Source: Bryoerythrophyllum caledonicum (lineage: Eukaryota > Streptophyta > Bryopsida > Pottiales > Pottiaceae). Taken from it: a stretch of DNA of 64,000 nucleotides. Below are positions 16,740-37,984 of the stretch, piece by piece. The position numbers and the translations under genes are program-made. The notes beneath the pieces are model-generated. The model had not been told where the DNA came from. It ran no database searches and saw only the letters and a program-made list of their open reading frames with translations. The stretch covers positions 6,526,028-6,590,027 of the forward strand of contig OZ020519.1 of the NCBI GenBank assembly GCA_963971425.1. The letters are read 5' to 3'. Positions within the stretch are counted from its first letter, which is position 1, and every line of letters begins with the position of its first letter.

Positions 16740-17350
16740 CAATCAACTCAAGGCCAGTCGGTCGGCACTTGGTGGTCGACTGCCATGCCGTCCGCTCCTA
16801 GAGCTTGGCGGACGGCCACCAAGCCACCAAGCCTCAAATTTCAGCAACTTCCTTCCCTCTCCTCCACTTCTCTCCACTCTTTGGCAACACGGAAGCGGTT
16901 TGGAATATTATTTTTTTGGGTAGATAGACATTGCATGTGCACTCTAAATTAGGAGAAAGAGTCACGTGCTTTATTAGTCAGAAGAATGTCTCAAAGATAT
17001 TATGCGAATATATATGAATATTCCATTTCAAATATCCTATGCACTTGGAAACATATGAAGAATAGAACTTGTGAATAGTAGTTTCACTTAAAAGTTAAAA
17101 TAGACTACACAAGAAATTTAGATTCATTTTTCTCCTATACTAACCACAAGCCTATGAGAATGGCCGTCCGCCCCGTCGTCCGTCTCTGGCATTTGGGTGC
17201 TTCCCTCCGTTGTCCGCCTCTCCAACTGCCACTTCTCACTACACGAGGGTTTGCCCTCCGGACTCTATGGCCGACCGGCGCTCCGTCGACTCTTGGCCGT
17301 CTGACCCACCGATTGCCTGGCCGTCCGCCCGGCGGTCGGCCTTAGGAGTC
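16740..17350. repeat. Two small GC-rich islands with GCCGTCCG/CGGACGGCC words
   Basis: 16745-16835 and 17155-17350 carry repeated GCCGTCCGC and GGCGGACGG words in AT-rich surroundings. They resemble the arrays at 12400-12660 and 31209-31600. No protein is supported. Confidence 0.5.
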
Positions 17351-17365
17351 CGCCAGAGCGGCTGA

Positions 17366-17719
17366 CTCCCTAGCCGTCCGCACAGGTTTTTTGGCCATAA
17401 CTCCCTCATTTTAGGGAGTTTTTGAACGTCTAATATATCATTCAAAGCGTCTTAAAAAATGCGCTTCCAACAATACATAGCGCGCAGCAGACGCCCAAGG
17501 GCCGTCCGCACGGCGGTCGGCCCTCACCCGTCCGCGCGGTTGACTCCCTAGCCGTCCGCACGGGTTTTTTGGCCATAACTCCCTCATTTTAGGGAGTTTT
17601 TGAACGTGTAATATACCATTCAAAGCGTCTTGAAAATGCGCTTCCAACGGTATATAGCGCGCAGCGGACGCCCAAGGGCCGTCCGCACGGCGGTCGGCCC
17701 TCACCCGTCCGCGCGGTTA
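17366..17719 (+). repeat. 178-bp tandem repeat, two units, split by the gypsy insertion
   Basis: The phrase TAGCCGTCCGCAC followed by GGTTTTTTGGCCATAACTCC begins at 17371 and again at 17549, a period of 178 bp. Both units share ATTCAAAGCGTCTT, GCGCTTCCAAC, GCGCGCAGC and CGCACGGCGGTCGGCC. A third partial unit resumes at 31108, just beyond the far end of the gypsy element, so the retrotransposon was inserted inside this array. Confidence 0.8.
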
Positions 17720-17723
17720 ACTG

Positions 17724-17949
17724 TGTCGTGCACAAACACATCGTGCAAAGATGACATCGTGCCAACAGGTGAGAGCGCACAATTAGAGGCAAACTCAGAG
17801 CAATGGTGACTATACTATCACCGTTGCCTCCGTAAACAACGAAAACAATAGTTCACAAAAGAAACTATCAACCTCCAACAATCTAGGCTAGGGAAAAAGA
17901 AATAAATACCCAGACCATAACATTTAGTAATTGGTCTACAAGAACCCCT
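17724..17949 (-). repeat. Outer part of the 3' LTR region (R1), repeated at 18321-18548
   Basis: About 225 bases nearly identical to 18321-18548, with shared landmarks ACAAACACATCGTGCAAAGA, GGTGAGAGCGCACAATTAGA and CATTTAGTAATTGGTCTACA. The two copies bracket the 371-bp segment L. No copy is present at the right LTR, so the LTR limits are not simple. Confidence 0.75.
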
Positions 17950-18320
17950 TTACTAACAAATAAGTGATAAACACTCACAAATCACAATAAGTCAAGTCCA
18001 TGCCACTCTTCAAGAGTGAAAACATGATATGGATGAGGCTAACGATGTGCAACACGCACACACCTTCACCTCATCACGTGGGAGACTCAACTTGAGAAAG
18101 ATGAGTCTCCCTCAACCACACGTGGAGGTCACCCGGGTTCCAAGTCCCGAGATGAGGTGTCGAAAGACACCACCGTTGCCCTGGCCGCCACGGGGCACTA
18201 AACCTAACCCTAATCTCCCATTACCGCTAAGTCTTGGGCTCTTCGGTAACTCCACAACTCTCTAGATGGTTTCTACCCAAATACCATCTATACAAACACC
18301 TCCATGCGCCGATCCTGACA
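17950..18320 (-). repeat. 3' LTR core (segment L)
   Basis: Matches 30737-31101 along its length with roughly ten substitutions and one indel. Its minus-strand start, TGTCAGGATCGGCG, is the same as the outer end of the element at 31101. It contains TAACAAATAAGTGATAAACA at its other end. Confidence 0.85.
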
Positions 18321-18550
18321 GCTATCGTACACAAACACATCGTGCAAAGATGACATCGTGCCAACAGGTGAGAGCGCACAATTAGAGGCAAACTCAGAGC
18401 AATGGTGACTATACTATCACCGTTGCCTCCGTAAACAACGAAAACAATAGTTCACAAAAGAAACTATCAACCTCCAACAATCTAGGCTAGGGAAAAAGAA
18501 ATAAATACCCAGACCATAACATTTAGTAATTGGTCTACAAGGACCCCTTA
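18321..18550 (-). repeat. Second copy of the R segment (R2), inside the 3' end
   Basis: Copy of 17724-17949 lying between the integrase stop and the LTR core. On the minus strand it is preceded by a purine run, GGCAAAGGGGGCGAG, that could be a polypurine tract. The R2-L-R1 order suggests tandem or recombined LTRs. Confidence 0.6.
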
Positions 18551-18782
18551 ACTCGCCCCCTTTGCCCGTGCTGAAGCCCCTTTCACACCGGCGAACCACA
18601 CAATTAACGTAAAGTGTATGAACGACCGAGCATGAAAACCTCTCAAGTCCAGAAAAATCAAGGTGACCTATAGAAAAGACACTAATAGACGGTGTAGACA
18701 AAGGATAGGCCGGGTGCAATGAGAGCCCCATCGTTAATCGCCTCTAACACTTTTAATGGCTAGACCTTGTCTATGTAGACTC

Positions 18783-20150
18783 TCAATGTGCTAAACAATT
18801 GGGACACGACCATTGACCCACTGGTATCTCTAGAAGAGGTGGGGTTAGACATTCTAGATGCCACCCCGTAGAACACAAGTCACAAATGACCATTGTAGCT
18901 GCCTGTTTGGCACTACCACACAATTGACATCGCAATCCAGCGGAGATGTGAGAAATACCAGGGTTTACCGTGCCATCAATGTGTGGTAAATGGCAAGGAG
19001 CGCAATTGCGCGTGTGATCCTTCCATATCTTACCATCACGACCCTCCAACAGTAACATTCCTGAGTGCTTCACCTCACGAACTCGCAAGATCACCCGTCC
19101 CGCTGTCACATCCAAGGTGGTGGGCGCTGCTTGCTGTAAATACACATAGTCTCCAGGAGTAAACCGTCGCACTTGCGGTCGGTAGCCTCCTCCCCGTATT
19201 GTAGCATAACGCAACGTATCTCGATGTTGAGCAATGGAGAGATTCTCCAATGCCATTGGCATCACCCGCTTGAACAAATCCGCACGTTGCTCACATACTT
19301 AAGTCCACGTGTCTGGATTGTCCATGTTAGCCAACACGGTGTCAGCATCTGCCTGAATGGCCTTTGGTAACACCGGTTGCCTTCCAAACAACAAGAAGTA
19401 AGGAGAAAAGGACGCCAAAGATGGTTGCTTGCTAAACCGGTAACCCATGGCTATCCACGGTAATTGCAAGTCCCAATCTTGATGATGTCCCTTCTTCAAG
19501 CCCCCTCTTGACGGTTTGCACCATGCGCTCCGCCAATCCATCCGCTTCGGGGTGATCCCTCGAAGTAGTGCGGTGATCTATCATCGCTTGCTCACACAAC
19601 GTTTGAAAGTCACCCAAGAATTCTCTTCCTTGGTCTGTGAGAACTTCCGCTAGAGCTCCAAAGCGACTCAAAACACGATCAAGAAAAGAGTAAGCGGCCC
19701 CCTCACTAAACTTGTCAGGCAACGCCACCAATTCTATCCATTTTGAGAAGTGCTCGATCATCACTAACACATACTTATTGTGTCGAGGTGTCATTGGCAA
19801 TGGACCAGCAAAATCTAAGCTCCATCTATATCCCAAGCCCATAATTGGCAATGGTTGCAATTGTGGCATCGGAGCGTTAAAAGACGCTCGTACCCGATCA
19901 CAAACTATACACCGGGCTACCAAGGCTTGAACTTGAGTTTACATTCCTCGCCACCAATAGTGAAGCTGGAGCAAGCTATAAGTCCTCCGCACTCCAAAGT
20001 GCCCAAGGTCTTCATGCGTGTCCTTGATGAGCTTCACTCTCTCCAATGGAGTTTGAACAACCTTCTGCGTGCCATCCGGCCACACCCTCAAAAGGTGAGT
20101 CCTCTCCCACACGAACCGTTTGGCTCGTTGTGAGACCCGATCTCTCTCCT
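18783..20150 (-). pseudogene. Gypsy integrase with C-terminal PHD finger (broken)
   Basis: Joins retroelement cDNA to host DNA. On the minus strand a zinc-binding His/Cys region (HEDLGHFGVRR and CIVC) precedes the catalytic D-D-E core, seen as SLDFAGPL, LTDQGREF and HPEADGLAER. A GPY/F-like stretch (RFTPGDYVYLQQ) follows. The last 48 residues are a C4HC3 PHD finger at 18795-18929 (CQLC, CDLC, HLEC, CPNC). PHD fingers often bind histone H3 tails, so here it may steer integration; that is inference. The position is where chromoviruses carry a chromodomain. Damage: TAA at 19939, TAA at 19299, and a one-base frame change in a five-G run near 19505. Confidence 0.8.
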
Positions 20151-23100
20151 TAGCGGACCACGTAGGCACCATTTCTCCATTCTTCAGAAAATGCATCACG
20201 TTCGTGTCTTCAAAGATGTCTTTGGCACCCCCAGATTCTTCACCGACATTCTCATCTACCGTGGCCACAGTAGAAGCTCCGGTGTCATCTCCACGCATCG
20301 CCAATACACTTAGAAAGGCCGAACAATGCCAATCTGGCAACGGATCGGCTTCATCCTCCCCGTGCCACCTAGCGCCCGTAGCATCCGCTTGGTTTGGAAT
20401 TGGATTGCGGCTAAGGCCGTCGGCATCCATATTCACTAATCCCGCTCTGTGCACCACCTTGAAGTCGTATTCCATCAACATCAAGGCCCACCGCGCTAGC
20501 TTGCCTGTTAGTTTGTCAGACTCCATCAACCACTTTAAAGGTTGATGATCCGTGACTAACAAGAACTCGTTACCATAGAGGTAACATCAAAAATGAGCAA
20601 TTGCCCATATGGCAGCCAAACACTCCCCTTCATATGAGCTATACTGGGCCTCCGCATTATTGTTGGACCGGCTGGCGTACGCAATGACAAACTCCTTCCC
20701 GTCGTCATCCATTTGCGTCAACACCGCACCAATTCCCAATGCGCTCCAATCTCTGTGTAGCTGGTATGTCCTTCCGGTTATTGGCCTTCGAAGTATAGGT
20801 GCCGATGCCAAGCGGTCCTTCAACTCTTGAAAGGCCACCTCTTGCTCATCTCCCTATATCCAAGGTTGATCATTCCTTGTCAACATGGTTAATGGTTTGG
20901 CAATAGCACTGAAAGTCTTCACAAACTTTCGATAGTAATTACACAACCCCAAGAATGCACGTAGCCTACTAATATCCTTTGGTCTAGGAATAGACATCAC
21001 TACTTCAATTTTACTAGCTATCACACCTAATCCACTTGGATATATCACGTGGCCTAAGTACTCGATGCGGTCAAAGTAGAATTTGCACTTACTAGGGTGC
21101 AACTTCAAACCGTGGAGCCTTAATCTAGCAAACACTTCCATCAAGTGTAGCCTATGTTGCCTTCGATTCGTGCTAAAGACAACAATGTCGTCAATGTAGC
21201 ATCTCACGAAATCCAAGCCCGAGAATACTCGGTCCATAACCCTCTGGAATTCGGCAGGCGCATTCTTCAATCCAAATGGTTAGAATTTCCATTGGAACAA
21301 CCCGTCCTTTCCATCTTTGTCAATGCCCCAAAACGCGGTCTTCTCCTTGTCTTCCTCTCTCAGTCCAATCTGGTGGTATCCAGAGCGCAAGTCCAACGTA
21401 CTAAATACCTTGGCGTGACCAATAGCCTCAAAGTTCTCCTCCGGCGTTGGCATCGCATAACCATCCGACTTGGTGAATTTGTTAATCCTCCTATAGTCCC
21501 CGCACATCCTCTTCTCGGTCCAATTACCGTAGATATCTTTCTTGGATGGCATAACCGTCGCCGATGCATACTCGCACTATAAGAAACCCGTGTTTTTTGT
21601 GACAGGGCAACTAACGTGCAATTACGTTTTGTGCAGCATCCGGCACGTCAACGTTGACGTCCAAAAAAATCCGTTATAATTGACATGCGAAAAACATGCC
21701 AAAATCTCAAAAAACAGGTCCACGTTTTTTAAAACGTCACAAAAACTTGGGGGTTGAAGGTGTTAAAAATCTGCCATGTGGCTGCCACGTCGCGTCCACG
21801 TCATCGCCACATGGACGGGCAGTGCCACATCCCCAACTTTTTCATCCGGGCCCTTGGTAATGTGGCCCATCATGTGGCGCATGACGTGGCATACGATTGT
21901 GACTAGGCTTGCATACGTGGACCCGCCATTTTATGACGTGGCACCTTTAAAATTTGACGTGTCACTTTTTAAAATATGACGTGGCATGTCCAATTAGCAT
22001 AGTTTAATGCAATAATTGATTGTGGACAGTGTAAATTGGGACGTCATTTCTAACACGGTATGTTTTTTGTGACGTTCGTTATGACGTTCTCTGTGACGTT
22101 CGTTGAGATGGAGGTCACCAAAAGCAAGCACCAAGTCAGCAAAAGCAAGTGCCATGTCACCAAAAAGAAGCGCCATGTCATCAAAAAATACCGTATCACT
22201 TTAAGTTTCAAAGGTAATTCAAATTCATCCAAATAGATGGATGAAAGTGAATCACTCTTGATTCAAGTGTGATGAGATAGGAGAGAAGGCCTTATATATA
22301 TATACAATGGGATGCACAAGTGGTGACAATCCATATGGGATTATTGGATTTGTCATGGTGTTAGCCTCGTGTTAGCATAAACATTAAAATGTCACAGTAG
22401 ACGTCCATCCAGACGTCTGTTCCAACATCCTCTTTGCCTACGTGGCAGCTGATTTCAACCTTGCCTACGTGGCACAAACATTTTAAAAAGAATCCAATTT
22501 CTATCTTGCCTACGTGGCTCAAACACGTTTTTTGTGACGTCAGTAACGACATCCACGTTTTTATTTTTGTAGGGGTCAACCCATCTCCATTGTGTTTTAA
22601 CCGTTGGGCAGTGTTTTACGGGAGGTTGCAGTAACAATCTCGAAGTTACTCACAGTGAATCTGAAACCCCCGTGCCGACGTGGCATTGTCACCTTTCTGA
22701 GGACGTTGTCTAAAACATGACTATGTTCACTAGGACGTCTCGCAAAACAAATACATTTATGCTAACATCTCTGCGTTTTTCCGCCAATTTTTCATGTTTG
22801 GTGCAACATCCACCAGAATCCGAAAGCCCAAGGCACGGCCTGTTCGCAAAAACATGTTTTGAAAAACACACTAGATCACAGCTAACGTCACAAAAATCAC
22901 GGGTTTCTTATAGTGTCGCAATCCGGTGGAGCCAACTCCACTAGCCCCGCAGCCACCAACTCCTCCGTACGAGCACGTATCATCCTCCGTTCAACGTCGC
23001 TATATTTGTACGGCTTCCGGTATATTGGTGCTTTGTCCGTCAAATTGATATGTGCTTCTTGCCCCTTCAATACTCCAAGATCTTCAAGACTAAAGGCAAA

Positions 23101-23301
23101 ACAATCTAAGTACTTCCTGAGGAACTCATGTTCCTCCCTCTCAACTGCTCCATCCGCCAAGCCTACCATCGGTTTCCGAGTATCCTTGGTCACCGCCTCC
23201 TTCGGTTCCTTTGGAGCAGGATTCTCCTTCCTTGGATGCCATGCGAAGGAGATTCCTCTCCTACCACCTCCACCAAGCTTCCAAGTCCTTCTAATTGGCA
23301 T
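19939..23301 (-). pseudogene. Gypsy reverse transcriptase and RNase H (broken, split by CACTA)
   Basis: Copies element RNA to DNA. From 23301 the frame reads a linker, then RT start motifs (INLTDKAPIYRKPYKYSDVE). After the CACTA element it continues with MCGDYRRIN, STLDLRSGYHQI and the active site CYIDDIVVFS (near 21210), then YLGHVI and FLGLCNYYRKF. RNase H follows (QLHRDWSALGIGAVLTQ, YASRSNN, YSSYEGECLA, LLVTDHQPLKWL). All parts are in one frame once the 1341-bp CACTA plus its 3-bp duplication is removed. Nonsense codons lie at 21280 (TAA), 20854 (TAG) and 20587 (TGA, where related proteins usually have Arg). Confidence 0.88.
21575..22915. mobile_element. Non-autonomous CACTA (En/Spm) transposon, 1341 bp
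   Basis: Begins CACTATAAGAAACCCGTG and ends with its reverse complement; the terminal repeats extend to about 28 bp with one mismatch. TCG flanks both ends (21572-21574 and 22916-22918), the 3-bp duplication typical of CACTA elements. No transposase is encoded. The interior carries many ACGTGGC or GCCACGT words and TTTTTTGTGACG words in both orientations, like the subterminal transposase-binding repeats of this superfamily. It is inserted in the reverse transcriptase reading frame of the gypsy element and is therefore younger. Confidence 0.92.
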
Positions 23302-24971
23302 AGTTTGCCAATTGTCTCCCTTTGGTGAGCTGTGTGTTCTCCCACGAACATATTCTCCACAGCCTCCTCCAAATCCTTCGTTTGGTGGGCCAGTTCCTTA
23401 CTTCGATTCCAATCCTTCACTCCATGAAGAGGATCCTCAGTCTTGGGTGTCGCGAAAAGGTTCGCGGAGCTCCACATATTCGATGGGTGACGTGCCAAGC
23501 CCTTCTCGCCCCCAACCACTTTGCCTGTCACCTTGACAGAGACAAATGGTTCTCCGGCCACCCGCAACTCATAAGACCCCATGTAACCAGTAAAACTAGA
23601 AGCCAACCGCTTCTGTTCTGCTACTAGCAACGAAACGATCCACGTCAAGCAATTTAAGTCCATCGCTTGCCGAAGTAAAAATCGCCGTTGTTGCTCTGAG
23701 ATCGCGGGCGCATCAGTAGTGCCCGTGGAAAATCCCATGGCTCTCTCCCGTTCATCCGCATTAGGCTCCACCATCTCTTGAGACAAGGAATTCCACACAA
23801 GACCCGGGCTGTTATCCTTAAAGGCATACGACCGAGCAAAACTAACCAACGTGGGTAGTGCCCTATGTGGTTCTCCTTTGCGGTTGACGACCGCCAAAGG
23901 TGCTTGGTCGTCATGATAAACGCGCCGCGGTGCCCTGTGCGGATCCAAAATATCACTCACATAGACATCCGGCCGTTTAATTCGACCCACAGCGGACTGT
24001 AACAATTCTTGAGGTGCTAAATTCGTCCACCACAATCGCGGGCGATGTGCTCGCGATCCCACTGCAGCTGCATCCAACAACACGGGCATACCCAGAGTCT
24101 GGTGTATGCGGTGCATGCCCTCCAATGTCCTCGACCTCGAGCTACTCATCACTGGTACGTTCTCCACAATGTAACCTGGTGGTCGCTTCTGAGAGGTTTG
24201 AAGCAAAGACAATACGCGAATCATATCATGAAACCGTGAAGAACGAGTGTCTTTCAACCCGTTTTGATGTCCAGCCATTGACAATCCTTGACATGGCCAT
24301 CCCGCGATGACAAGGTCCACATGGCCAGCACGGTGAATATCCTCTGCTGAAAGCAAAGCAATATCCCCAACAAGGGTAGAAAAGGAAGTCTTGATGGCAC
24401 TAGTGGCCAATAAGTTTGGGAATTGGGTCCTCAATCGCCGTGAATGCCGCTTAGCCATGTGCCTTGCTGCCTCATCAACATCTACGTAGATGTAGCGTTT
24501 GACCTTCATCCCTGCTTGCAGCACTGCCGCCAAGCCACTTCCAATCCCGCCGAACAACTCCAACAACACAATACCATCCTCTGGTACCTTCCACTGAATG
24601 GTAGAAGTGTCTAGACGTGGGCCCAAGTCTTGGTCCACTCGAGAATCATCTTTCGGTTGTGGGAGTATCGAATGCTGCCAAGCATCTTCAATGACCTGTG
24701 CCGCATCCCTCTGAAGTTGAGTCGTGGTCCTCCACGCTACTTCTATGCCAAGTTGATACGTCTTTATATCTCCACCACTTGTGTCACCCACTTGGGCATC
24801 CATCTCGTGAAGTGTAGGAGTATCCATCGAGAAAGTATCACAACCCTTGTGAAACCATGATGGTCTCACATCCATACCTCCTAAGAAGGCAAACACGTAT
24901 GCAAGATTGCCAGTCAGAACTCGAATAAAACGAGCTGGCAGCTGGGCCTTCCGCCCATCTCCTCTTGCCAT
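23190..24971 (-). CDS. Retrotransposon-encoded C5-cytosine DNA methyltransferase
   Basis: Would transfer a methyl group from S-adenosylmethionine to cytosine C5 in DNA. The 593-residue frame has the canonical motifs in order: I at 138-146 (ELFGGIGSG), IV with catalytic Cys227 (GWPCQGLS), VI at 269-272 (VENV), VIII at 306-312 (SRAHRPR), IX at 370-374 (RALPT) and a motif X-like helix near 429-445. The spacing between IV and VIII and the phrase AHRPRLWWTNL resemble DNMT3-type enzymes more than DNMT1 or CMT. No chromodomain or BAH domain is visible. The domain spans about 24572-23622 and has no internal stop. It lies between protease and reverse transcriptase in the same orientation, so it is part of the polyprotein. 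The frame changes at both edges (near 24960 and 23300), so the given start is only the limit of the open frame. Confidence 0.87.
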   Translation of the reverse strand: MARGDGRKAQLPARFIRVLTGNLAYVFAFLGGMDVRPSWFHKGCDTFSMDTPTLHEMDAQVGDTSGGDIKTYQLGIEVAWRTTTQLQRDAAQVIEDAWQHSILPQPKDDSRVDQDLGPRLDTSTIQWKVPEDGIVLLELFGGIGSGLAAVLQAGMKVKRYIYVDVDEAARHMAKRHSRRLRTQFPNLLATSAIKTSFSTLVGDIALLSAEDIHRAGHVDLVIAGWPCQGLSMAGHQNGLKDTRSSRFHDMIRVLSLLQTSQKRPPGYIVENVPVMSSSRSRTLEGMHRIHQTLGMPVLLDAAAVGSRAHRPRLWWTNLAPQELLQSAVGRIKRPDVYVSDILDPHRAPRRVYHDDQAPLAVVNRKGEPHRALPTLVSFARSYAFKDNSPGLVWNSLSQEMVEPNADERERAMGFSTGTTDAPAISEQQRRFLLRQAMDLNCLTWIVSLLVAEQKRLASSFTGYMGSYELRVAGEPFVSVKVTGKVVGGEKGLARHPSNMWSSANLFATPKTEDPLHGVKDWNRSKELAHQTKDLEEAVENMFVGEHTAHQRETIGKLCQLEGLGSLVEVVGEESPSHGIQGRRILLQRNRRRR

Positions 24972-25139
24972 CCTGGTCTATAACTTGCGGTTTCCTCCCA
25001 GAAATCCAAGGTGAACCACATGGGGTATAGCACCACCGAGCCCACCAAGACATCGTATGACTTGGCCTCCGTTACTATAGCTTTCACCTTCATAAAGCTT
25101 GCATCCTCGACATCATCTTCGTTGAGTCTTAAAATCAAC

Positions 25140-25310
25140 TCCGCCTTCGTGATGCCGAAGCATGCTCCGTACCCCCCATGGAAGTGCTAATTGTCCATGG
25201 ACACTTCTCCAAAGTGTCCCCAGTCAAACCCAACTCCTCACGGGCAGATGCTCCCAGCATCAATGGTTGAGCTCCTAAATCCAAAAGCACTCGTCGAGCC
25301 ACAAATACCC
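25140..25310 (-). pseudogene. Gypsy aspartic protease (frame-shifted)
   Basis: Would cleave the polyprotein. In the frame one base back from gag, the minus strand reads ARRVLLDLGAQPLMLGAS, a retropepsin core with DLGA in place of the usual DSGA or DTGA, followed by LGLTGDTL. The frame is entered at a run of seven G at the gag end (see findings). It changes again at a six-G run near 25175, after which YGACFGITKAELIL and then SYDVLVGSVVLYP continue towards the methyltransferase. Confidence 0.7.
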
Positions 25311-27323
25311 CCCCTTGGGCCCAACAAGTTGGAAAATCCCCTGAGAGTTGTCAACCACCACCACACCAGGTGTAATGGATGACCTCTCGATTGCAGGTCT
25401 GGCGGCCATGGTCTTGACATGCATGGCTGCTGAAAGCAGTCCCTCCACGTTGTCCTCTTGACTCTTATCCACCTCTCCTCCAACCACTTCCGTCTTCGAC
25501 GCATTGACGCCCGTGGAGTCACTCGACTCACACATTTGAGCCGCCACCCTGAAGACCGCTGCTGCATTGAAGCCCTCTTGTGACATCAATTTAGCAGAAA
25601 ATAGTGAAGCCTCACAAACCATATTTGCCGTTTCTCTCACCACCATACTAGATGGCTCTACAATCCCAACGCTAGGGCGAGTTGTTGGCACCGCTCGACG
25701 CGTTGGAGGCACCATGGAAGATGTTGGCACCATCTCCTCCAACGTGAAAGACTCTGGCAATCGAGCTTGCCGGTTGTCCTTCCCATGTTGAGGATCGAAG
25801 GTTGGACTTGCTCCACGTGGACCCTCCTTGGTCACCGGTGTTTGACTCCGCGTAAGGGCATAAGCCTCCCGTGAGCCCGCCGTAATAGCAAGTGCCATGC
25901 CACTTAACATATAGTCCCCGAATTCATCATCATCGGGCCTAAACCCGCCCCCAGCATAAAAATTAGGAGTGACTTGGGGCTTTTCACTCGCTGAAGCAGC
26001 ATTTGTGCTCATGGCCGCCATCTTGGCTTCCAACTCTGCGAATTTGGCCTTCCAACCTTTCTTGTCTCCTCCCGAAGACTTGGACTCCTTCTCCTTGTTG
26101 CTTGCCTTGATTCCCTTGCCTCCAGAAGGCTTCAACTCGGGGTGAAGCTTCCAACACTTAGCCTCGGAATGCCCCTTGGCACCACAACCAGAGCAATAGC
26201 TACCGGTTTGAGGGGTAGAGGACTGGTCTTCCTTGCAATCCTTCCTCAAATGCCCCGGTTTGCCACAACTAAAGCATAATGCTTCAGTGTCGGTGGCATA
26301 GGAGGGAACCGAAGCCTTGGCCACCTTGACCTTTTCAGGAATCTTCTCTTCACGTTTGAGAAATCCCATGGCTGCTTTCTCCTCCAATAAATTGATCTCA
26401 ATTCTCTCGGACGTCTCGAACACAAATCTCAAAGTCGGTGGCTCACCCAATCGCAATGCTTCATTGCAAACTAATGTTTTCAGCTCCTTCTCTAAGATGC
26501 TGTACCAGTGCTGCACCGCTTGCTGCTCCGTGACTCCGTGAGTAGCAGAAATCAGTCTCCGCAATCTCGCATGAACTTCTCGCAAGGATTCATCTCCTCC
26601 TCGCGCAAAAGACCTCAATGCCTTCATCTTATCCGCCCGTTGACCTTGATAGTCTCGACGGATCTGTGTGAAGAATACGGCCGTAGGGTTTAATGGAGGT
26701 GGAATAGCCACCGTTTCCATCGGTTGGCTCAAGTCCTCGGCACTACTCGTGCCCTCTTCCTGCTTCCCCTTTCCCACACGTGAAGGAACACTCGGCGCTC
26801 CGCCGAATACATCCGCATAATTCGGTGCATAGAAATCCCTCCATGCCAATATCTCCGTGAGGTGAGCCGCCTCGAACTCCCCATAAACCGCTAACAGAGC
26901 TCCCTCTAGACATCCAAATAACGCCCTCCACACCATGTAAGGGTTGAAGTTGGGGTTGCGAGACTTCTGGAGTTCACACCACATGGTGAACTCCCTCTTG
27001 AAGTCATCCGCTTCGATAGTGCCCGTGGCACCCGAAAACCGTCGCACCCTCCGTTCTCCTCCTCCTCCATACGGTGAAGCCATCTCCTCCCAATCAAAAA
27101 TTGATTGCAAAGGCTTTCTTGGTGGGGAACGTACACTACGTGCCAAAGATTCTACCACAAACTCACGTTCTTCTACTATCGCTTGAACCGTATCCTCCTC
27201 TTCCTTCGATTCAGTGGTAACTTCCTCCACCACTCGTTCACGAATGCCTACCGCAAATGGGGTGTTTCTCCGAGTGGAACCGGGCCCCTTCCACGTCTCC
27301 AGATTGAGAATTGGTTGGCTCAA
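25275..27323 (-). CDS. Gypsy Gag with two zinc knuckles
   Basis: Structural protein that packages element RNA. The 682-residue frame has a capsid-like helical region (about residues 100-320, with FKREFTMWCELQKS and VFFTQIRRDYQG) and two CCHC knuckles. Knuckle 1 is at 350-363 (CFSCGKPGHLRKDC) and knuckle 2 at 377-390 (CSGCGAKGHSEAKC). A Lys-rich stretch and a long Ser/Thr/Pro-rich tail follow. The frame has no ATG at its start. It continues from the upstream gag frame (27961-27320) by a one-base frame change at 27323, and is best read as the main part of one Gag. It ends at TAG 25275, just past a seven-G run where the protease frame begins. Confidence 0.82.
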   Translation of the reverse strand: MSQPILNLETWKGPGSTRRNTPFAVGIRERVVEEVTTESKEEEDTVQAIVEEREFVVESLARSVRSPPRKPLQSIFDWEEMASPYGGGGERRVRRFSGATGTIEADDFKREFTMWCELQKSRNPNFNPYMVWRALFGCLEGALLAVYGEFEAAHLTEILAWRDFYAPNYADVFGGAPSVPSRVGKGKQEEGTSSAEDLSQPMETVAIPPPLNPTAVFFTQIRRDYQGQRADKMKALRSFARGGDESLREVHARLRRLISATHGVTEQQAVQHWYSILEKELKTLVCNEALRLGEPPTLRFVFETSERIEINLLEEKAAMGFLKREEKIPEKVKVAKASVPSYATDTEALCFSCGKPGHLRKDCKEDQSSTPQTGSYCSGCGAKGHSEAKCWKLHPELKPSGGKGIKASNKEKESKSSGGDKKGWKAKFAELEAKMAAMSTNAASASEKPQVTPNFYAGGGFRPDDDEFGDYMLSGMALAITAGSREAYALTRSQTPVTKEGPRGASPTFDPQHGKDNRQARLPESFTLEEMVPTSSMVPPTRRAVPTTRPSVGIVEPSSMVVRETANMVCEASLFSAKLMSQEGFNAAAVFRVAAQMCESSDSTGVNASKTEVVGGEVDKSQEDNVEGLLSAAMHVKTMAARPAIERSSITPGVVVVDNSQGIFQLVGPKGGYLWLDECFWI

Positions 27324-27961
27324 TCAAAGAAGCGCCATGCTTCATGAGTGCCCTTCTTCTCCGGAGCGTAGATAGTGGGTGGTACTTCCCAATCGAGTAG
27401 CTCCAAGGTGAGTGTGTCCCACACACTGCTGGCCCGCTCTCGCCACGTACCCACTTCCCACTGCCATGTAGTATGAAACACGAAGCCTTCACTCTCAAAC
27501 TCGGTGAAGATGAGGGAGAACGTGGGCAATTGGTTCCCTCGGCGGAAATCCACCACCTCCACGGTGTACCTTGACCCAACGTTCTTTAGGACAACGGCCT
27601 TCTCTCCAACCACAAGATCCACGGCTTCAACTTGGCCTCGTGCACGACAAAGAGGAGCTCGAACACCCTCTTTGGCCCGAAGCGCTCGAACTTTGCGCAC
27701 CCCACCAAGTGAAGTCCAATACTTCACGGACTCTTCGCTTAGCACCTTCGTGCCTGGCTTTCGCAAGTCTTGAGTCCCGGTTCGAGACTTGGCTATGGGA
27801 GATAACTCAAAATCCCTACCACTAGAGCTTGCCTGGGAAGATGAAGATTGAACTTGCAAATCTTGGAGGCAAGTAATCAATTGACTAAGGGTCTCGGTGC
27901 TAATTTCTACCGTGGATGCACTAGATTCTTTTGATTCCTTCTTCTTTCCTCCACTATCCAT
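27320..27961 (-). CDS. N-terminal part of gypsy Gag
   Basis: Starts at ATG 27961 (MDSGGKKK) and runs to TGA at 27320. It has a charged, Ser-rich N-terminus, a possible coiled coil (STETLSQLITCLQDLQVQSSS), and a compact region with GEKAVVLKNVGSRYTVEVVDF. No known domain is recognised. Its last residues overlap the next frame exactly. A single missing T in the GATTGAG context would join them, so I read the break as an indel rather than a separate protein. Confidence 0.6.
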   Translation of the reverse strand: MDSGGKKKESKESSASTVEISTETLSQLITCLQDLQVQSSSSQASSSGRDFELSPIAKSRTGTQDLRKPGTKVLSEESVKYWTSLGGVRKVRALRAKEGVRAPLCRARGQVEAVDLVVGEKAVVLKNVGSRYTVEVVDFRRGNQLPTFSLIFTEFESEGFVFHTTWQWEVGTWRERASSVWDTLTLELLDWEVPPTIYAPEKKGTHEAWRFFD

Positions 27962-27979
27962 GTCCCATATGCTCAATGC

Positions 27980-30736
27980 AACCCACTCTTTTTACGTGGT
28001 TGTATTAAGTGGGCTCACAATGGATGTTAGGGGAATGCTAGATTAGGGGAATGCTCGAATTTCACTTCTTGTTCACTATCATATGCCACACTTAGCTCAC
28101 GTGATGCAACACATCAACGGTGTGCACAACAATTTGATGAGAACAACCCAAATTCTAGCCATACATGATCCCCACAATCCAAATTCCTAGCCGAAGTACA
28201 AGAGGAAAGCGACAATGTCACTCACCATCCCATTCCTCTACTAGTCACTCCCCAAAGGTGGCAAGGCGCAAGAAAAAGGTGACTATGGCACCCAATATCC
28301 CACAACTCTTCCAATCACTCTCACAAGCAAATTGGCAAGGATAAGAAGTGGGCAACAATGGTACCCACTATCCCACACCTTCACCTCTTACAAGAATGAC
28401 GAAGAGCAAGAAGAAGGTGACTATGGCACCCGCTCTCCCGCACTTTCACCACTTACTAACAAGATGCAACATACAAACTTGTCACTCCCCCAAGCAACCG
28501 ACTACCCCCTCCCAACGCGGGTCCGGATACGTTACCTTGTTGAAATAGTCCTGGGCCTCCGAATAGCTACCACTAGCTACTCCTAAAGGAAACCCTAATT
28601 TTAATCTATGCCTTATAATGCCTCGTGCAAGAGGCTGGCCTTTCTCTAGAACCAAATAAATTCTAGGCTAACACCCTAAAATTCTAAGTGATCAAAATCA
28701 CTAGAAACGGGCAGCTCTTGCACTAGCATGTACACAAAACTAACATGCGCTCAAGCATGTATCATTCCCACATGGAGACAATTGCACTATGCAATTCTAA
28801 CAAACTTTGGGCAGCGCTTCCACGTTACCAAGAGCACCAAAATTTCACCAGGAGACGAAAACACGCTATTTTACAAGCTTCTGATTCAACAAGTTGCACC
28901 ACAAAATGGACGAGAATAACGAGATAGCAAAACAGCCATTTCACATACTGTGCACTTTGAATCATTCTTCAAAAGAGCCTCATTCTTGTCCACAATACTC
29001 CAATACCACGCTCGCTGGCTGCAAAGTGACATGAACTCAGTGTCGAGCACACTTTTCCTGGTTTCATGTGCTCCAAGAGCATTTGAACAATCTGGTCACC
29101 AGATTGCTTCACCGAGATCGAGCAGATTCTGAGCTCCGATACTCAAATGGTCACATCACCAGGATCAACCGGCCAATAGCCCTCGCGTATAACGGGAGTG
29201 CAGACGTGTTCTCTCTGAAATGCTGAGGATCAATACTGCCCAAGACCAACTCTCCTCCAAAGTTGAACCTGCTTGACAGAGTCGTTGAGGACGAGCGCGC
29301 ACAACGCGCACGGTACCTGCCCAAGCGTGGCCTTCAGTGACGCGGGGCTCGTGCTGGTCCTGACGCTTGCCTTACAAAGCAGCAGCCCTGACAAATCAGA
29401 TCATACAAGTTGACGCAGACTCTTCACAGCCCTCAACCCTTGATCTGCACACTCCTGCTCTCTTGCGGATCTGCGCGCTTCTACACTCTGAGTGTGATCC
29501 GAAGCTGGAACCCTTGTGTAGATTCCCGCCGAAATTCGCTCACTCCCAGCGATCAACTTCAGCGCTCTCCTTCACCAACACCTACGCCGTCACCAACGCC
29601 GGCAGCTTCTTGTTGCCTTCTGCGTCCCCAAACTTGGTGTCGCGCAACTCTCCGTACGAGGAGAGCGATCCGAAGCAAACCCTAGTGCTCCAAACCCTGA
29701 ACGATCCTGAGTTTTCTCAAACCTGGTACTCTTAATGTACCACGTATAAGTGCACGCTTCTGTGAGCACCAGCACTCCCCGTGATCTCATACAATCCCAC
29801 GAACAGCCCGAACGCATTCCATGGGAATGTAGTCGGCGCAAACAGACAGTGACCGGGCAGTATCTTCTCCTTGCTGGCGCGAGCTCGAGCACAACCTCCG
29901 CCAGTTGCCTCGTGCAGCTGTCCAACCAGATTGGAAGAACTCCACAAAGCAGAAAATGGATCGTGAAGGTCTGCACACAGCCTGAACCAACTCCTGTACA
30001 GACTAAACCTACTCCCGGATCGCCGTCGCCGCTACCTCTCGCACCGCGGCCCCTGCCTTTCCCAGAACCGCCGCCAAACTTCCAACAGAGTCAAACTCTC
30101 GCAGGTTATCACCACACGACCTCCCACTTTAGTTAACTCCTGTCCTGAAGGTACCGCAGCTTCACAATGATCGGAAGAGCCGACATCGAAGGATCAACAA
30201 GCAACGTCGCTATGAACGCTTGGCTGGCACAAGCCAGTTATCTTCGTGATGTCCTCGAAGACGGCCTCCGTGAACTTCCCCGACCTCGCCGTCACGTAGT
30301 CCAGCAGCTTCTGCACGAACAGGCTTTGCCGTTCCAACGTCGGCACGTCCTAGAACGACGGCAGCGCCTCAAAGCTACCGTTCGCCACCTTCCCCTCAAA
30401 CATACATAAACCCGAACCAAGGTGAGGAAATCCTCACGAGCTGCTGCAGCTTCAAGAGCTTTCATTTGAAGAACAAAAGCGTGCCTCCGAACCCGTCTCG
30501 TACATTCAAGTATCGAATTAGCACTGGCGATGCAACGTCGCACAATGCTCCAACAGTGTTCGTTGCACTTTCTTCAAAGGGTACACTTGCAAGGGCGGCG
30601 AAACTTGTTGAAGTGGGGTCTATTGCCTAGGACTCCACCTTGATTGCTTCACTCCAGCACCACGTCCACAGAACCCCAGTAGATGTACTATAATGTTGTG
30701 GTTACACCCATTTCCACAACATGATCTTTCTCAAGT
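27980..30736 (-). other. Long 5' leader of the gypsy element, partly GC-rich
   Basis: 2.7 kb between the 5' LTR core and gag. 28200-28460 carries three to four imperfect tandem units of about 80 bases (GGTGACTATGGCACCC followed by TCCCAC). 29100-30560 is GC-richer and gene-like on the minus strand. One minus frame near 30410-30205 reads VANGSFEALPSF, a stop, then DVPTLERQSLFVQKLL and KFTEAVFEDITK, which looks like real protein of an unknown family and may be captured host coding sequence. The primer-binding site was not identified. Confidence 0.45.
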
Positions 30737-31101
30737 AACAAATAAGTGATAAACACTCACAATCACAATAAGTCAAGTCCATGCCACTCTTCAAGAGTGA
30801 AAACATGATATGGATGAGGCTAACGATGTGCAACACGCACACACCTTCACCTCATCACGTGGGAGACTCAACTTGAGAAAGATGAGTCTACCTCAACCAC
30901 ACGTGGAGGTCACCCGGGTTCCAAGTCTCGAGATGAGGTGTCGAAAGACACCACCGTTGCCCTAGCCGCCACGCAGCACTAAACCTAACCCTAATCTCCC
31001 ATTAGCGCTAAGTCTTGGGCTCTCCGGTAACTCCACAACTCTCTAGATGGTTTCTACCCGAATACCATCTATACAAACACCTCCATACGCCGATCCTGAC
31101 A
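30737..31101 (-). repeat. 5' LTR core of the gypsy element (segment L)
   Basis: 365 bases matching 17950-18320 with about 3 percent difference. It begins on the minus strand with TGTCAGGATCGGCG at the target duplication ACTG. The R segment that accompanies the other LTR is absent here. Confidence 0.85.
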
Positions 31102-31107
31102 ACTGCC

Positions 31108-31235
31108 TAGCCGTCCGCACGGGTTTTTTGGCCATAACTCCCTCAGTTTTGGGAGTTTTTAAACGTGTAATATACCATTCAAAGCGTCTTGAAAATGCGC
31201 TTCCAACGGTATATAGTGCGCAGCGGATGGCCGAC
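31108..31235 (+). repeat. Third, partial unit of the 178-bp repeat
   Basis: TAGCCGTCCGCACGGG, TTTTTTGGCCATAACTCCCT, ATTCAAAGCGTCTTGAAAAT and GCGCTTCCAACGGTATATAG match the units at 17371 and 17549. Together they bracket the gypsy insertion. Confidence 0.8.
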
Positions 31236-31715
31236 CGCCGACCGCCATTCGGACAACCAGGCGGACGGCTAACGGCCGACCACCATTCGGACGGCCAAAA
31301 TGCCGACCGCCATTCGGACGGCCGATCGGACGGTCAAAACGCCGACCGCCATTCGGACGGCCGGGCGGATGGCTGCCGGACGGCCAACCCCTGATTGCCA
31401 TTTGGACAGTCGGGCGGACGGCCAACTATCGACCGCCATTCGGACGGCCTAGCGGTCGGCACCGACCGACCACCGAGCGGTCGTGGCGAGCGGACGGTGG
31501 GGCGGACACCACTAACAGACCACCTGGCGGTTGCGACGGGAAGACGGAGGGTGGTCGCATCTGACGGCCGAGTGGTCGGCCGAGGCTGCGGACGGCTATT
31601 TACCCCCGGGTAAATTGACAAAACTCGTTATGTCACCGGACGTCCTGATAGGCCCGAGGACGTCCTTCGTCTTGACGTCCGGACGTGAGCGACGTCGAGC
31701 GTCCTGACAACCCTG
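31209..31715 (-). mobile_element. GC-rich module with CGGACGGCC array and CAGGGTT end (copy 2, inverted)
   Basis: 31230-31600 is an array of CGGACGGCC words with CATTCGGACGG and ACCGACCGCC variants. It is followed by TTTACCCCCGGGTAAA, ACGTCC words and an end reading GCGTCCTGACAACCCTG (reverse complement CAGGGTTGTCAGGACGC). The order mirrors 12213-12665. The frames in the array are GC artefacts. Confidence 0.45.
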
Positions 31716-33068: not shown

Positions 33069-33233
33069 TATTGGATCTCAAGAGTAGAGAAGATGAATTA
33101 AGGTGAGACGTAAGTCTCTTAAATACAAAGTGGGTGCAGATGCACAGCAGCCCTTGGCTACAAGGGAAGGTGTAACCTAACCCTAACCTAATGTGATGAA
33201 TGTCTACAGTGAAGGTTTCTTCTAGTAACAACA
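33069..33233 (-). repeat. Copia 3' LTR
   Basis: 165 bp, near-identical to 37815-37979. On the minus strand it starts TGTTGTTACTAGAAG and ends GAGATCCAATA. Confidence 0.93.
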
Positions 33234-33318
33234 CCCTCCCTGAAACCGGAAGTGGAAGAAGTGATAAGTACTTGAGGTCAATTTACAGAAAGAAAAATTT
33301 ATGGTACTACAAATGTGT

Positions 33319-36300
33319 TCATTGGTTGTCGTTGTTAGAGCTTACAGTAGAGTGGGTGCTACTGTATTGGAAAAGTTGCTTGCAGTTGTTGAATTTGATG
33401 CGTCCAAGTGCCTTTGTGAGCATGTCAGCAGGTTGTTGATCTGTTGGTGTATAAGTGATGTTGACCAATCGTTTGTTGACCATATCTCTGACATAATTTA
33501 GGTGTATTTCAAAATGTTTTGTCTTGGGGTGAAATTGCAGGTTGTCAGAGATCTTGATGGCACTTTGGTTGTCACACTGAATATTTGTTGGTTTGTTGGG
33601 GTCAAAACCAAGTTCTTGAAGTAATACCCGTATCCACATTGCTTCTTTGGTTGCCTCAACCAATGAATGGAATTCAGATTCGGTGGACGATAAAGCTATA
33701 TAAGTTTGTTTTTTTGTGTTCCACGTGACTGGAATATTGTTGATGGAAAAAATGTAGGCGCCAGTGGATTTCCGTTGGTCAAGGTCACCACCCCAATCTG
33801 CATCGCTGTATCCAATGAGTTCGATTTTGTCTTGTCGGGAATAAAATAGACCTTGTGATGTTGTTCCGCGGATATAGCGTAAGATGTGTTTGGCAGCTTG
33901 GAAATGGGCGAGTTGCGGGGATGAATTGAACCTAGATAGTAGGTTAATAGGATACGTAGGATCGTGCCTTGTGGTGGTGAGGAAAGAGAGTTTACCGATT
34001 AAAGATCGGTAAGTGGTAGGATCAAAATTTGGAGTGCCAGTTTGACTTGAAGTAGTGAAACCGGGCGGTAGAGGGGTTTGTGTGGGATTGCACTCTTGCA
34101 TCCCATAGTTTTCTAGTATGCTTTGAGCATAGGTGGCTTGGTGGATAAGGATGCCTCGGGATGATATGATAAATTCTATTCCTGTGAACTTGGTGAGACC
34201 GCGGAGGTATGACATCCTGAATCGAGCCATTAACTTTTTTTTAAGCCAGGCGATCATGGTTTTGTGATTGCCGATGAGTAATAAGTCATCGACATAAAGT
34301 ATGAGTATGATGATGAAATTGCCTTGTCGAAATAAATATAGATTGTTGTCGGCGTGAGATGGTTGCAGTCCATGTTTTTTAAGCCAACGGCTTATTTTTC
34401 GGTTCCAGTTGCGGGCGGACTGTTTCAATCCATATAAAGAACGATGTAGCTTGCAAACTAAATCCTCTTTTCCTCGAATTTTGTGCCCAGGTGGTTGATG
34501 TATGTAAACTTTTTCCTTGAGGTGACTGTTGAGATAGGCGGTTTTTACATCAAGGTGGTGTGTTTTCCATCCAAAAGTGGCGGCTAGAGCTATAGCAATT
34601 TTAATTATGTTATACTTGGCGATGGATGCAAAAGTTTCGTTGTAATCAATACCTTCTCGTTGTTGGAATCCTCGTGCTACAAGTCGAGCTTTATAGCGTT
34701 CGGGTATATCACCTTGAGCTGGTTTTAGTTTGAATATCCATTTTGAAGTGATGGCTCTGTGTCCGATGGATAACTTTGTAAAAGTCCATGTTTTGTTTTC
34801 CTCGAGGCTATCCAGTTCTTCTTTCATGGCTTGTGTCCAATGGGGGTCTTTCAAGGCATCTCGATATGTGAGCTCAGAATCTTCAATGGCTCCAATGTAT
34901 CTGTCGAGTCTCGTCGAAGGTCGTCGCATGCGGTTTGAGCGTCGCAATGATGGGGTTGGTTCGATAATTTTGGGTGGAGGTGGAGAATGATACTCGGGTG
35001 TAAGAGAGTGTGATGGAGCATCATTGGATGGAAGTTGGGATATTGTTGGAGGTTCCTGTGGAATGGATATGGCAGATGGTGTAATATGGGGAGTGGATGA
35101 GACGGAGGTCGGGATAATCACCTTGAATTGGTCACATATATGGTCGATTTGTGTGGTCATATTCGGGTGGGTATATCCAAATTTGTCTTCATCGATTTTG
35201 ATGTCTTGTGATATGATGATGCGTTGTGTTTGGGGGTCATAGCATCGATATCCCTTGGTTGATTCGTCACGTCCTAATAGTATATATTTTGTTGATTTTG
35301 ATGACAGTTTGTGTCGTTTTTCTTTTGGGATATGTTCGTATATTCGTGTGCCGAATGTTCGAATTTGGGAGACATCGGGTTTGTTGCCGGAGAAGGCTTC
35401 TTCGGGTGTCGTGTTGTTTAATGCTCTTGTCGGAAGTCGGTTTGTAAGATATGCTGCGGCTTTGATTGCTTCTGACCATAACTATTTTGGTAAAGAGTGT
35501 TGAAAACACAAGCACCTTGCCATTTCTACTATGGAGCGGTTTTTTCTTTCAGCTACTCCATTCCTTTGAGGAGTATAAGTTTGTGTGAATTCATGGTGAA
35601 TCCCGGAGTTGATGAGTAATTCATCAAATGCTTTGGATGTGTATTCCGTTCCATTATCGGTTTAGAATTCTTTGATACGTTTGCTAGTCCGATTTTCAAG
35701 ACGGTTTTTGAATTTTATAAATTTGTAAATGACTTGGTCTTTGGTCTTGATGAGAGATATCCATAATTTTCGGCTATAATCATCAATAAATGTGACAAAG
35801 TAGCGTGCTCCGGTGATGGATGGCCGTTTGAAGGGTCCGCACACATCACTATGTACTATTTGAAGTACTTCCGTTGTGTGTGGTGTGCTTGTAGGGAAGG
35901 CTTTACGACTCTGTTTACCTTGTTGGCACATGTCGCATATAATGTCGAGATGTGGTAAACGTGGCAATCCGTTCACAATCCCTAATTTTGACATAATGTG
36001 CAAGGTTTTAAAATTAATGTGCCCCAACCTTTGATGCCATAGTAATATTTTGGCTTTGATTTTTTTATTGGGTTCTAATGCATTGAGTTTGGGCCATATT
36101 GTGGTTTCTAACTTATATAGCCCCTTGCCTTGCATTCTAGTCCCATATCCAATAGTTTCTTTGGAATAGCTGTCTTGGAGTATAACTCCTTTGTTGTGGA
36201 ACTTCACATATATATCCTCATCGGTAATACGTCCCACGGATAAAAGATTGCGTTGAATACCCGGCACATACAAAATATTTTTAAATTTCTTGGATTTTCC

Positions 36301-37814: not shown

Positions 37815-37979
37815 TATTGGATCTCAAGAGTAGAGAAGATGAATTACGGTGAGACGTAAGTCTCTTAAATATAAAGTGGGTGCAGATGCACAGCAGTCCT
37901 TGGCTGCAAGGGAAGGTGTAACCTAACCCTAACCTAATGTGATCAATGTCTACAGTGAAGGTTTCTTCTAGTAATAACA
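37815..37979 (-). repeat. Copia 5' LTR
   Basis: 165 bp. On the minus strand it starts TGTTATTACTAGAAG and ends GAGATCCAATA. It carries a short CCCTAACC tract, also present in the other LTR, that is not telomeric. Confidence 0.93.
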
Positions 37980-37984
37980 CTTAT

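What the first reader, a model, noticed from the sequence alone, without database searches (positions are those of the whole stretch)
23190..24971. A Ty3/gypsy retrotransposon that carries its own C5-cytosine DNA methyltransferase
Seen: an uninterrupted methyltransferase domain with motifs I, IV (catalytic Cys227), VI, VIII and IX in canonical order lies between protease and reverse transcriptase of a bounded gypsy element, on the same strand. Known: most LTR elements are targets, not carriers, of DNA methylation. I recall one report of retrotransposon-encoded methyltransferases in dinoflagellates and charophyte algae (de Mendoza and colleagues, 2018). Inference: the element could methylate its own cDNA or new copies, perhaps to limit damage to the host or to hide from sensing.
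Basis: partly seen in the sequence, partly recalled or inferred. Interest (0 to 1): 0.95.

Follow-up and report, generated by a model that had tools for sequence, protein, structure and literature searches.

The report
Moss-like retrotransposon carrying DNA methyltransferase
A jumping gene in a moss-like plant carries its own DNA-methylating enzyme, kept by selection and placed just before a virus-like leaky stop signal; the idea was known from algae, but this layout and its unusual ends look new.

Summary
The frame encodes a complete DNMT3-fold C5-cytosine methyltransferase inside a Ty3/gypsy-type element with at least 74 copies in this 437-Mb genome. Between two ~75%-identical subfamilies, dN/dS of the catalytic core is 0.04. 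The basic idea is published (KnitGypsy-Dnmt3, de Mendoza 2018), so this is a variant, not a first.

What looks new: (1) The methyltransferase lies on the Gag-protease side of a conserved UAG in tobamovirus-type readthrough context (UAG-CAR-YYA, 35 of 38 copies), so it should be made with every Gag, while RT-integrase-PHD needs readthrough. (2) A large retro-DNMT lineage has two layouts, PR-DNMT-RT (bryophytes) and RNaseH-DNMT-integrase (algae, metagenomes); integrases of both can carry a PHD finger. (3) The ends fit a self-primed LTR element cut inside its LTR at GACA|GC|TGTC, as if inserted from circles: 0, 1 or 3 extra end modules, exact 4-bp target duplications in 9 of 10 copies.

The window copy is dead: a 10-bp deletion removes the leaky stop, and there are frameshifts and an insertion in RT. 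Enzyme activity, readthrough and self-methylation are inferred, not shown.

The parts
17720..17723 (.). 4-bp target-site duplication, 3' side (CAGT in element sense)
17724..17954 (-). terminal A module (A2), ends ...GACA
17955..18320 (-). internal B module (B2), starts TGTC...
18321..18322 (-). GC dinucleotide between A1 and B2 (attachment-site core; GACA-GC-TGTC in most resolved junctions, one base changed here)
18323..18552 (-). A1 module, directly after the polypurine tract
18553..18563 (-). polypurine-tract-like AAAGGGGGCGA abutting A1
   Evidence: read by eye
18795..18929 (-). PHD finger at integrase C-terminus
   Evidence: PF00628, E 1.2e-10
18786..20436 (-). integrase (H2C2, rve) with C-terminal extension and PHD; one frame break near 19495
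20395..23235 (-). reverse transcriptase and RNase H; split by DNA at 21577-22914 that does not match copy L004
23226..23237 (-). site of the leaky stop; in this copy the 10 bp TAGCAACCAA seen in other copies are absent
23190..24977 (-). open frame holding the DNMT
23610..24581 (-). DNMT3-fold catalytic domain (residues 133-456); catalytic Cys codon 24291-24293
24965..25341 (-). aspartic protease region (LLDSGAQP in copy L004), frame-broken here
25275..27323 (-). Gag with CCHC zinc knuckle (26229-26276)
27323..27991 (-). ORF0, 223 aa, no Pfam match, 98.7% identical to that of copy L004
30693..30722 (-). hairpin after the primer site; arms differ in sequence between subfamilies but pair in both
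   Evidence: read by eye
30724..30735 (-). putative self-priming site CTTGAGAAAGAT abutting B1
30872..30883 (-). 12 nt in B1 complementary to that site (putative RNA 5' end / primer)
30736..31101 (-). 5' B module (B1), starts TGTC
31102..31105 (.). 4-bp target-site duplication, 5' side

Best explanation
It is a dead copy of a recently active Ty3/gypsy-type family of a moss-like plant. The family makes (i) a Gag-protease-DNMT polyprotein of about 1360 aa and (ii), by reading through a tobamovirus-type leaky UAG, a longer protein that adds RT, RNase H, integrase and a PHD finger. The DNMT is thus supplied at Gag level, probably inside the particle, and most likely methylates the element's new DNA before or at insertion; the PHD finger probably steers insertion by reading histone H3. 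Reverse transcription starts by self-priming from the RNA's own 5' end. The classical LTR is A-GC-B, but integrase cuts at the palindrome GACA-GC-TGTC inside it, so insertion of one-LTR or multi-LTR circles gives 0, 1 or 3 extra end modules. Shown by sequence: domain order, conserved stop and context, selection on the DNMT, end structure, 4-bp duplications, primer complementarity. Inferred: readthrough, packaging, cDNA methylation, circle integration, PHD targeting.
Against: No expression, readthrough, methylation or enzyme data. In the published yeast assay the KnitGypsy-Dnmt3 domain gave no detectable methylation, which its authors call inconclusive (PMC5890265, section 10). Motif IV is WPCQ where DNMT3A has SPCN. 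In 3 of 38 loci (L036, L037, L039) the stop site is present but out of the DNMT frame, and most of the 84 relatives do not end at ...IQ, many being cut by contig ends. Circle integration rests on end structure alone; n=0 copies could also come from linear DNA cut at both LTRs, or from A-A recombination. The window's two B modules differ by 9 of 364, more than the mean between elements (7.0), although they share private variants. C-to-T decay in all contexts is what host silencing alone would give.
Confidence: 0.66

Rival explanations
1. The DNMT acts on the element's RNA, or serves only as a nucleic-acid-binding part of Gag, not as a DNA methylase.
For: It is made on the Gag side of the stop, where nucleic-acid-binding parts usually sit; de Mendoza et al. 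raise RNA methylation for the LINE type.
Against: Pro-Cys of motif IV kept in 37 of 38 copies, with core dN/dS far below that of the flanking parts of the same protein; best fold matches are the DNA methylases DNMT3A/3B, and DNMT2 is a weak sequence match (E 0.009).
Confidence: 0.15
2. The in-frame TAG is not read through: Pol comes from a spliced or internally started message, or the family has lost Pol and is moved by others.
For: No translation data exist; ordinary stop-codon decay is common; one copy, L030, has CAG in place of TAG.
Against: The same TAG with a CAR-YYA context is kept in both subfamilies although dS between them is above 1, and the frame stays open for 1041 codons after it in L004; other in-frame stops are scattered.
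Confidence: 0.12
3. The end structure is a true DIRS-type split repeat inherited from a tyrosine-recombinase element, not an LTR cut internally.
For: The layout A-coding-B-A-B is what de Mendoza et al. call DIRS-like for the K. nitens element.
Against: A DDE integrase is present and no tyrosine recombinase matched in the five ORF pieces of copy L004 scanned; 4-bp duplications and TG...CA ends; a primer site abuts B and a polypurine tract abuts A.
Confidence: 0.15
4. A one-off insertion of a host DNMT gene into one element, without function.
For: None found.
Against: 74 scored copies, cross-species relatives with protease before the DNMT, purifying selection.
Confidence: 0.01

Closest known systems
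KnitGypsy-Dnmt3 of Klebsormidium nitens (de Mendoza et al. 2018, PMC5890265; part 1 of the text, sections 9-11 and search passages seen)
   Same: Gypsy element with a DNMT3-class domain in its polyprotein, several copies, purifying selection, end repeats of the A-coding-B-A-B type.
   Different: There the DNMT is described in the Pol ORF; here it lies before a conserved leaky stop, with Gag and protease. Host is moss-like. PHD finger, 4-bp duplications, variable module number, attachment palindrome and self-priming site are not mentioned in the parts I saw. Direct sequence comparison was not possible.
SymbioDIRS-Dnmt3 and SymbioLINE-Dnmt of dinoflagellates (same paper)
   Same: Retrotransposon-borne C5-methyltransferase; SymbioDIRS domains methylated CG in yeast.
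   Different: Different retroelement classes: tyrosine recombinase or endonuclease instead of DDE integrase.
Tobamovirus-type readthrough (UAG-CAR-YYA; PMC2754532, passages seen) and RIRE2, a rice gypsy element cited there as a readthrough candidate (reference seen only)
   Same: Same stop and 3' hexanucleotide rule.
   Different: Here the signal splits a Gag-protease-DNMT protein from RT-integrase.
Tf1/Sushi-type self-primed gypsy elements (recalled; a 'self' priming label seen in PMC6317226 passages)
   Same: Primer site next to the LTR is complementary to the RNA's own 5' region.
   Different: The integrase ends lie inside the LTR here.
REM1 of Chlamydomonas (Perez-Alegre et al. 2005; PHD content recalled, only a citing passage seen)
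   Same: Gypsy-type element with chromatin-reading parts.
   Different: In REM1 the integrase remnant with chromodomain is in reverse frame (passage); no DNMT known to me.

Membership tests
Ty3/gypsy retrotransposon | Gag-PR-RT-RNaseH-IN order with gypsy-type RT, RNase H, H2C2-rve integrase | tested here: met
   Pfam Gag and protease matches are below their cut-offs, zinc knuckle above
Ty3/gypsy retrotransposon | flanking LTRs ending TG...CA with 4-5 bp duplications | tested here: inconclusive
   TG...CA ends; exact 4-bp duplications in 9 of 10 copies resolved, but repeats are split, and absent in 3 of 10
KnitGypsy-Dnmt3 family | DNMT3-class domain in a gypsy polyprotein under purifying selection | tested here: met
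KnitGypsy-Dnmt3 family | A-coding-B-A-B end repeats | tested here: met
   (6 of 10 have exactly this; 3 have none, 1 has three extra modules)
KnitGypsy-Dnmt3 family | sequence relatedness to the published K. nitens copies | not testable with these tools
   no protein named Klebsormidium in the lists or 77
DNMT3 family methyltransferase | motifs in canonical order and DNMT3 fold | tested here: met
DNMT3 family methyltransferase | groups with cellular DNMT3 genes in a tree | not tested
   host DNMTs could not be fetched (genome search busy); the tree has only one DNMT3A fragment as outgroup
DIRS order | tyrosine recombinase | tested here: not met
   rve DDE integrase instead; no tyrosine recombinase match in the ORF pieces scanned
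TMV-type readthrough signal | UAG followed by CAR-YYA | tested here: met
   35 of 38 loci
TMV-type readthrough signal | measured readthrough | not testable with these tools
   needs a reporter assay

The most novel reading that the evidence does not exclude
An LTR retrotransposon whose DDE integrase inserts circular DNA by cutting a palindromic attachment site inside the LTR, and which packs a methyltransferase at Gag-level amounts so that this circular DNA is methylated before it enters host chromatin, with a PHD reader choosing where. Methylated-circle insertion would be a life cycle not described for any LTR element that I know of.
Probability: 0.3. Interest if true: 0.9.

Novelty: new variant of a known kind. 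Interest (0 to 1): 0.72.

Why it matters
It suggests that retrotransposons carrying a DNA methyltransferase are not an oddity of two algal groups but a large lineage in green algae and bryophytes, held by selection here, with two domain layouts. The leaky-stop placement predicts enzyme dosage and makes the open question of why a transposon would methylate DNA directly testable. The internal attachment site and variable end modules offer a natural test of whether DDE integrases can insert circular retro-DNA.

Tried and rejected
Chance ORF and one-off host-gene insertion: rejected. Viral origin: no support; one viral contig with a 27% match (one pattern, 4 stretches). Change of genetic code (TAG as sense): rejected because one position alone carries TAG in most copies and other stops are scattered as TAG, TGA and TAA. 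Splicing as the source of the B-A unit: no GT donor at the B end (by eye). tRNA primer site: no TGG in the stretch printed around and after B's end in the two subfamily-2 elements, and the nearest lies 19 nt past B in the window copy; the self-primer fits instead. L005 and L017: no A-module match in the 3' stretch fetched, so left out of the end counts; a repeat fetch of the L017 stretch was not analysed further. The open_frame column was not used for intactness because it disagrees with stops seen (for example L008). A host tree with MET1, CMT, DRM and DNMT3, a genome-wide count of end modules, and a search for DNMT-less sister copies could not be done.

Literature searches for a bryophyte retro-DNMT, a PHD-bearing gypsy element, or this end structure: (one search was for readthrough). 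No such report stood out in the listed titles and abstract starts other than PMC5890265; I opened five papers (PMC5890265, PMC12344493, PMC2754532, PMC6317226, PMC2774666), the last four by passages only, and no supplements.

Full report

THE ELEMENT. Around it lie Gag with a CCHC knuckle, RT, RNase H, integrase (H2C2 and rve) and a PHD finger at the integrase C-terminus. Protease is recognised by LLDSGAQP and a weak Pfam match (E 0.0037) in copy L004. The element runs from 31101 down to 17724, starts TGTC, ends GACA, and is flanked by the 4-bp duplication CAGT. The window copy is dead. Against copy L004 it has frame breaks around the protease, lacks 10 bp at the stop site, has non-matching DNA at 21577-22914 inside RT, and a frame break in integrase.

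COPIES. The genome (437 Mb, 894 contigs, unnamed) gave 74 scored copies out of 2308 first-look candidates, a lower bound; most full matches lie between about 79 and 95% identity to the window copy, and a second group at 73-75%. Of the 30 copies returned as loci, a protease motif was found in 28, a zinc knuckle in 24 and the RT YIDD motif in 27 within the stretch held. The host is moss-like by one gene: a PF00724 (OPR-type) exon in the window is 74% identical to a Physcomitrium protein and 66% to a Ceratodon protein, and 94% to an unnamed one; only matches at E 1e-60 or better were asked for. This is a weak basis for the name.

THE LEAKY STOP. In copy L004, read as three separate pieces, Gag-knuckles-protease-DNMT is one frame of 1360 codons, then TAG, then RT-RNaseH-integrase-PHD for 1041 codons in the same frame to a TAA. 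In 30 loci, 28 have the TAG and 27 have CAR-TAG-CAR-YYA. The exceptions are the window copy (deleted), L030 (CAG in place of TAG) and L019 (last base changed). With eight more loci, six of them subfamily 2, the counts are TAG in 36 of 38 and TAG-CAR-YYA in 35 of 38. In L036, L037 and L039 the site is present but out of the DNMT frame. The hexanucleotide CAR YYA after UAG is the published requirement for readthrough of tobacco mosaic virus RNA (PMC2754532, passages). Five of the 84 relatives end just after the DNMT at ...IQ (P0008, P0013, P0015, P0016, P0018), as expected if the stop is shared; others end elsewhere or at contig ends, and their DNA was not seen. Inference: the DNMT is made with each Gag, Pol less often.

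SELECTION. Of 38 loci, 25 have no stop in the aligned DNMT stretch before the TAG. Between subfamilies (30 by 6 copies, stop codons skipped; L039 and L040 left out) the core, residues 131-450, has dN 0.072, dS 1.65, ratio 0.04; the stretch before it 0.25; the tail 0.38. Within groups (19 stop-free copies; 6 copies) the core ratio is 0.16 and 0.18. Pro-Cys of motif IV is kept in 37 of 38. Changes private to one of 30 copies are mostly C-to-T or G-to-A: 0.198 per site at CG, 0.246 at CHG and 0.147 at CHH, against 0.027 for A/T transitions. This suggests methylation of the copies in all contexts, by whichever enzyme.

RELATIVES. Eighty-four proteins matched the frame (7996 candidates scored): liverworts (Marchantia, Calypogeia, Riccia), Sphagnum, and many unnamed metagenome proteins; named ones such as P0031, P0054 (Marchantia) and P0052 (Sphagnum) hold a protease motif before the DNMT. 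A search with an alignment of distant members gave 87 matches, among them Scenedesmus sp. and unnamed EukProt entries. Several carry the DNMT between RNase H and integrase: RT-RNaseH-DNMT in P0100 and P0104, DNMT-H2C2-rve-PHD in P0094, P0123 and P0125. In a quick tree of 94 domains plus one DNMT3A fragment, the 30 sequences scored by motif patterns as RNaseH-DNMT-IN and the 9 scored as PR-DNMT or DNMT-RT fall on two sides of one branch (SH-aLRT 99, no bootstrap); 55 of 94 had no layout call, and the root is unsure because the outgroup branch is long. P0051, with DNMT and RT in one frame, sits outside but next to the RNaseH-DNMT-IN group. The integrase-PHD part of copy L004 aligns with 14 relatives through the PHD finger at 39-46% identity. 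So one retroelement lineage holds DNMT and PHD in two layouts: either one capture that moved, or two captures of like genes.

THE ENDS. Two modules, B (about 366 nt, starts TGTC) and A (about 231 nt, ends GACA), make up the ends. Both ends were resolved in 10 copies: B-coding-A alone in 3 (L002, L004, L038), one extra GC-B-A unit in 6 (window, L003, L007, L026, L034, L035), and three extra units in 1 (L014). L005 and L017 were not resolved. The joint reads GACA-GC-TGTC in L007, L014 (all three), L026, L034 and L035; it has one base changed in the window copy and is three bases shorter in L003. The 4-bp duplications, read by eye, are exact in 9 of 10; L003 has 3 of 4. Module copies inside one element share private variants (window, L003, L026) and differ little in young copies (L007 1 of 596; L035 B modules identical over 372; window 13 of 593, its B modules by more than the mean between elements), so they are renewed together at insertion, as LTRs are. 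B is followed directly by CTTGAGAAAGAT, which is perfectly complementary to B positions about 219-230 in 12 of 12 elements examined, with 0 of 500 shuffles as good in each; no TGG of a tRNA site abuts B. A polypurine tract abuts A in the four elements printed.

READING OF THE ENDS. Primer site next to B and polypurine tract next to A mean that the classical LTR is A-GC-B, with U3 = A + GC + the first ~218 nt of B. B joined to A is then the ordinary LTR-LTR joint, and the integrase ends lie inside the LTR at GACA-GC-TGTC, a perfect palindrome. Cutting there in a one-LTR circle gives the form with no extra unit; in a two-LTR circle the form with one; in a four-LTR circle the form with three. The two GC bases are lost at the ends, as expected of integrase processing. 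This would also account for the DIRS-like repeat order reported for the K. nitens element (PMC5890265, section 9). It is inference from structure; no circle has been seen.

WHAT IT PROBABLY DOES. Placed with Gag, the enzyme would be in the particle and could methylate new DNA before insertion. Possible gains: passing as host DNA, or entering chromatin pre-silenced and so costing the host less. De Mendoza et al. discuss such roles, and found CG methylation in yeast for two SymbioDIRS domains but not for the K. nitens or LINE ones, which they call inconclusive. Nothing here decides among them.

NOVELTY. A DNMT-bearing gypsy element is published (PMC5890265), and retro-DNMT3s are restated in a 2025 survey (PMC12344493, passages). 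I found no report of bryophyte members, the Gag-side placement with a leaky stop, the PHD link, or the end structure in the searches named in Tried and rejected. I therefore call it a new variant of a known kind.

Noticed in passing
window 33319-37449 (-): Two long frames with copia-type RT, integrase and Gag features, read by eye from the ORF listing; bounded by 166-nt repeats at 33069-33234 and 37815-37980 that are 96% identical, probably a Ty1/copia element.
   Followed up: no
window 27323-27991 (-) and L031:3969-4637: ORF0, 223 aa, 98.7% identical between two copies, in another frame just before Gag; no Pfam match.
   Followed up: partly
window 17320-17723 and 31102-31245: The element sits in a tandem repeat of about 180 bp; the repeat phase on both sides agrees with a 4-bp target duplication.
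   Followed up: partly
window 21577-22914 (-): About 1.3 kb inside RT with no match to the RT of copy L004, probably a later insertion.
   Followed up: no
window 49243-49980 (+): Exon of a PF00724 (OPR-like, old yellow enzyme) plant gene, 74% identical to a Physcomitrium protein.
   Followed up: partly
window 30693-30722 (-); L034 and L035 elements after B: Hairpin after the primer site whose arms differ in sequence between subfamilies but still pair (by eye); may matter for packaging or priming.
   Followed up: no
P0026: A protein of this retro-DNMT family is labelled as from a Candidatus Obscuribacterales bacterium; likely plant or algal DNA in a metagenome bin.
   Followed up: no
copies L001-L030 and L033-L038: dS of the DNMT core is about twice that of the stretch before it within both subfamilies (0.053 against 0.025; 0.057 against 0.028), unexplained.
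   Followed up: no
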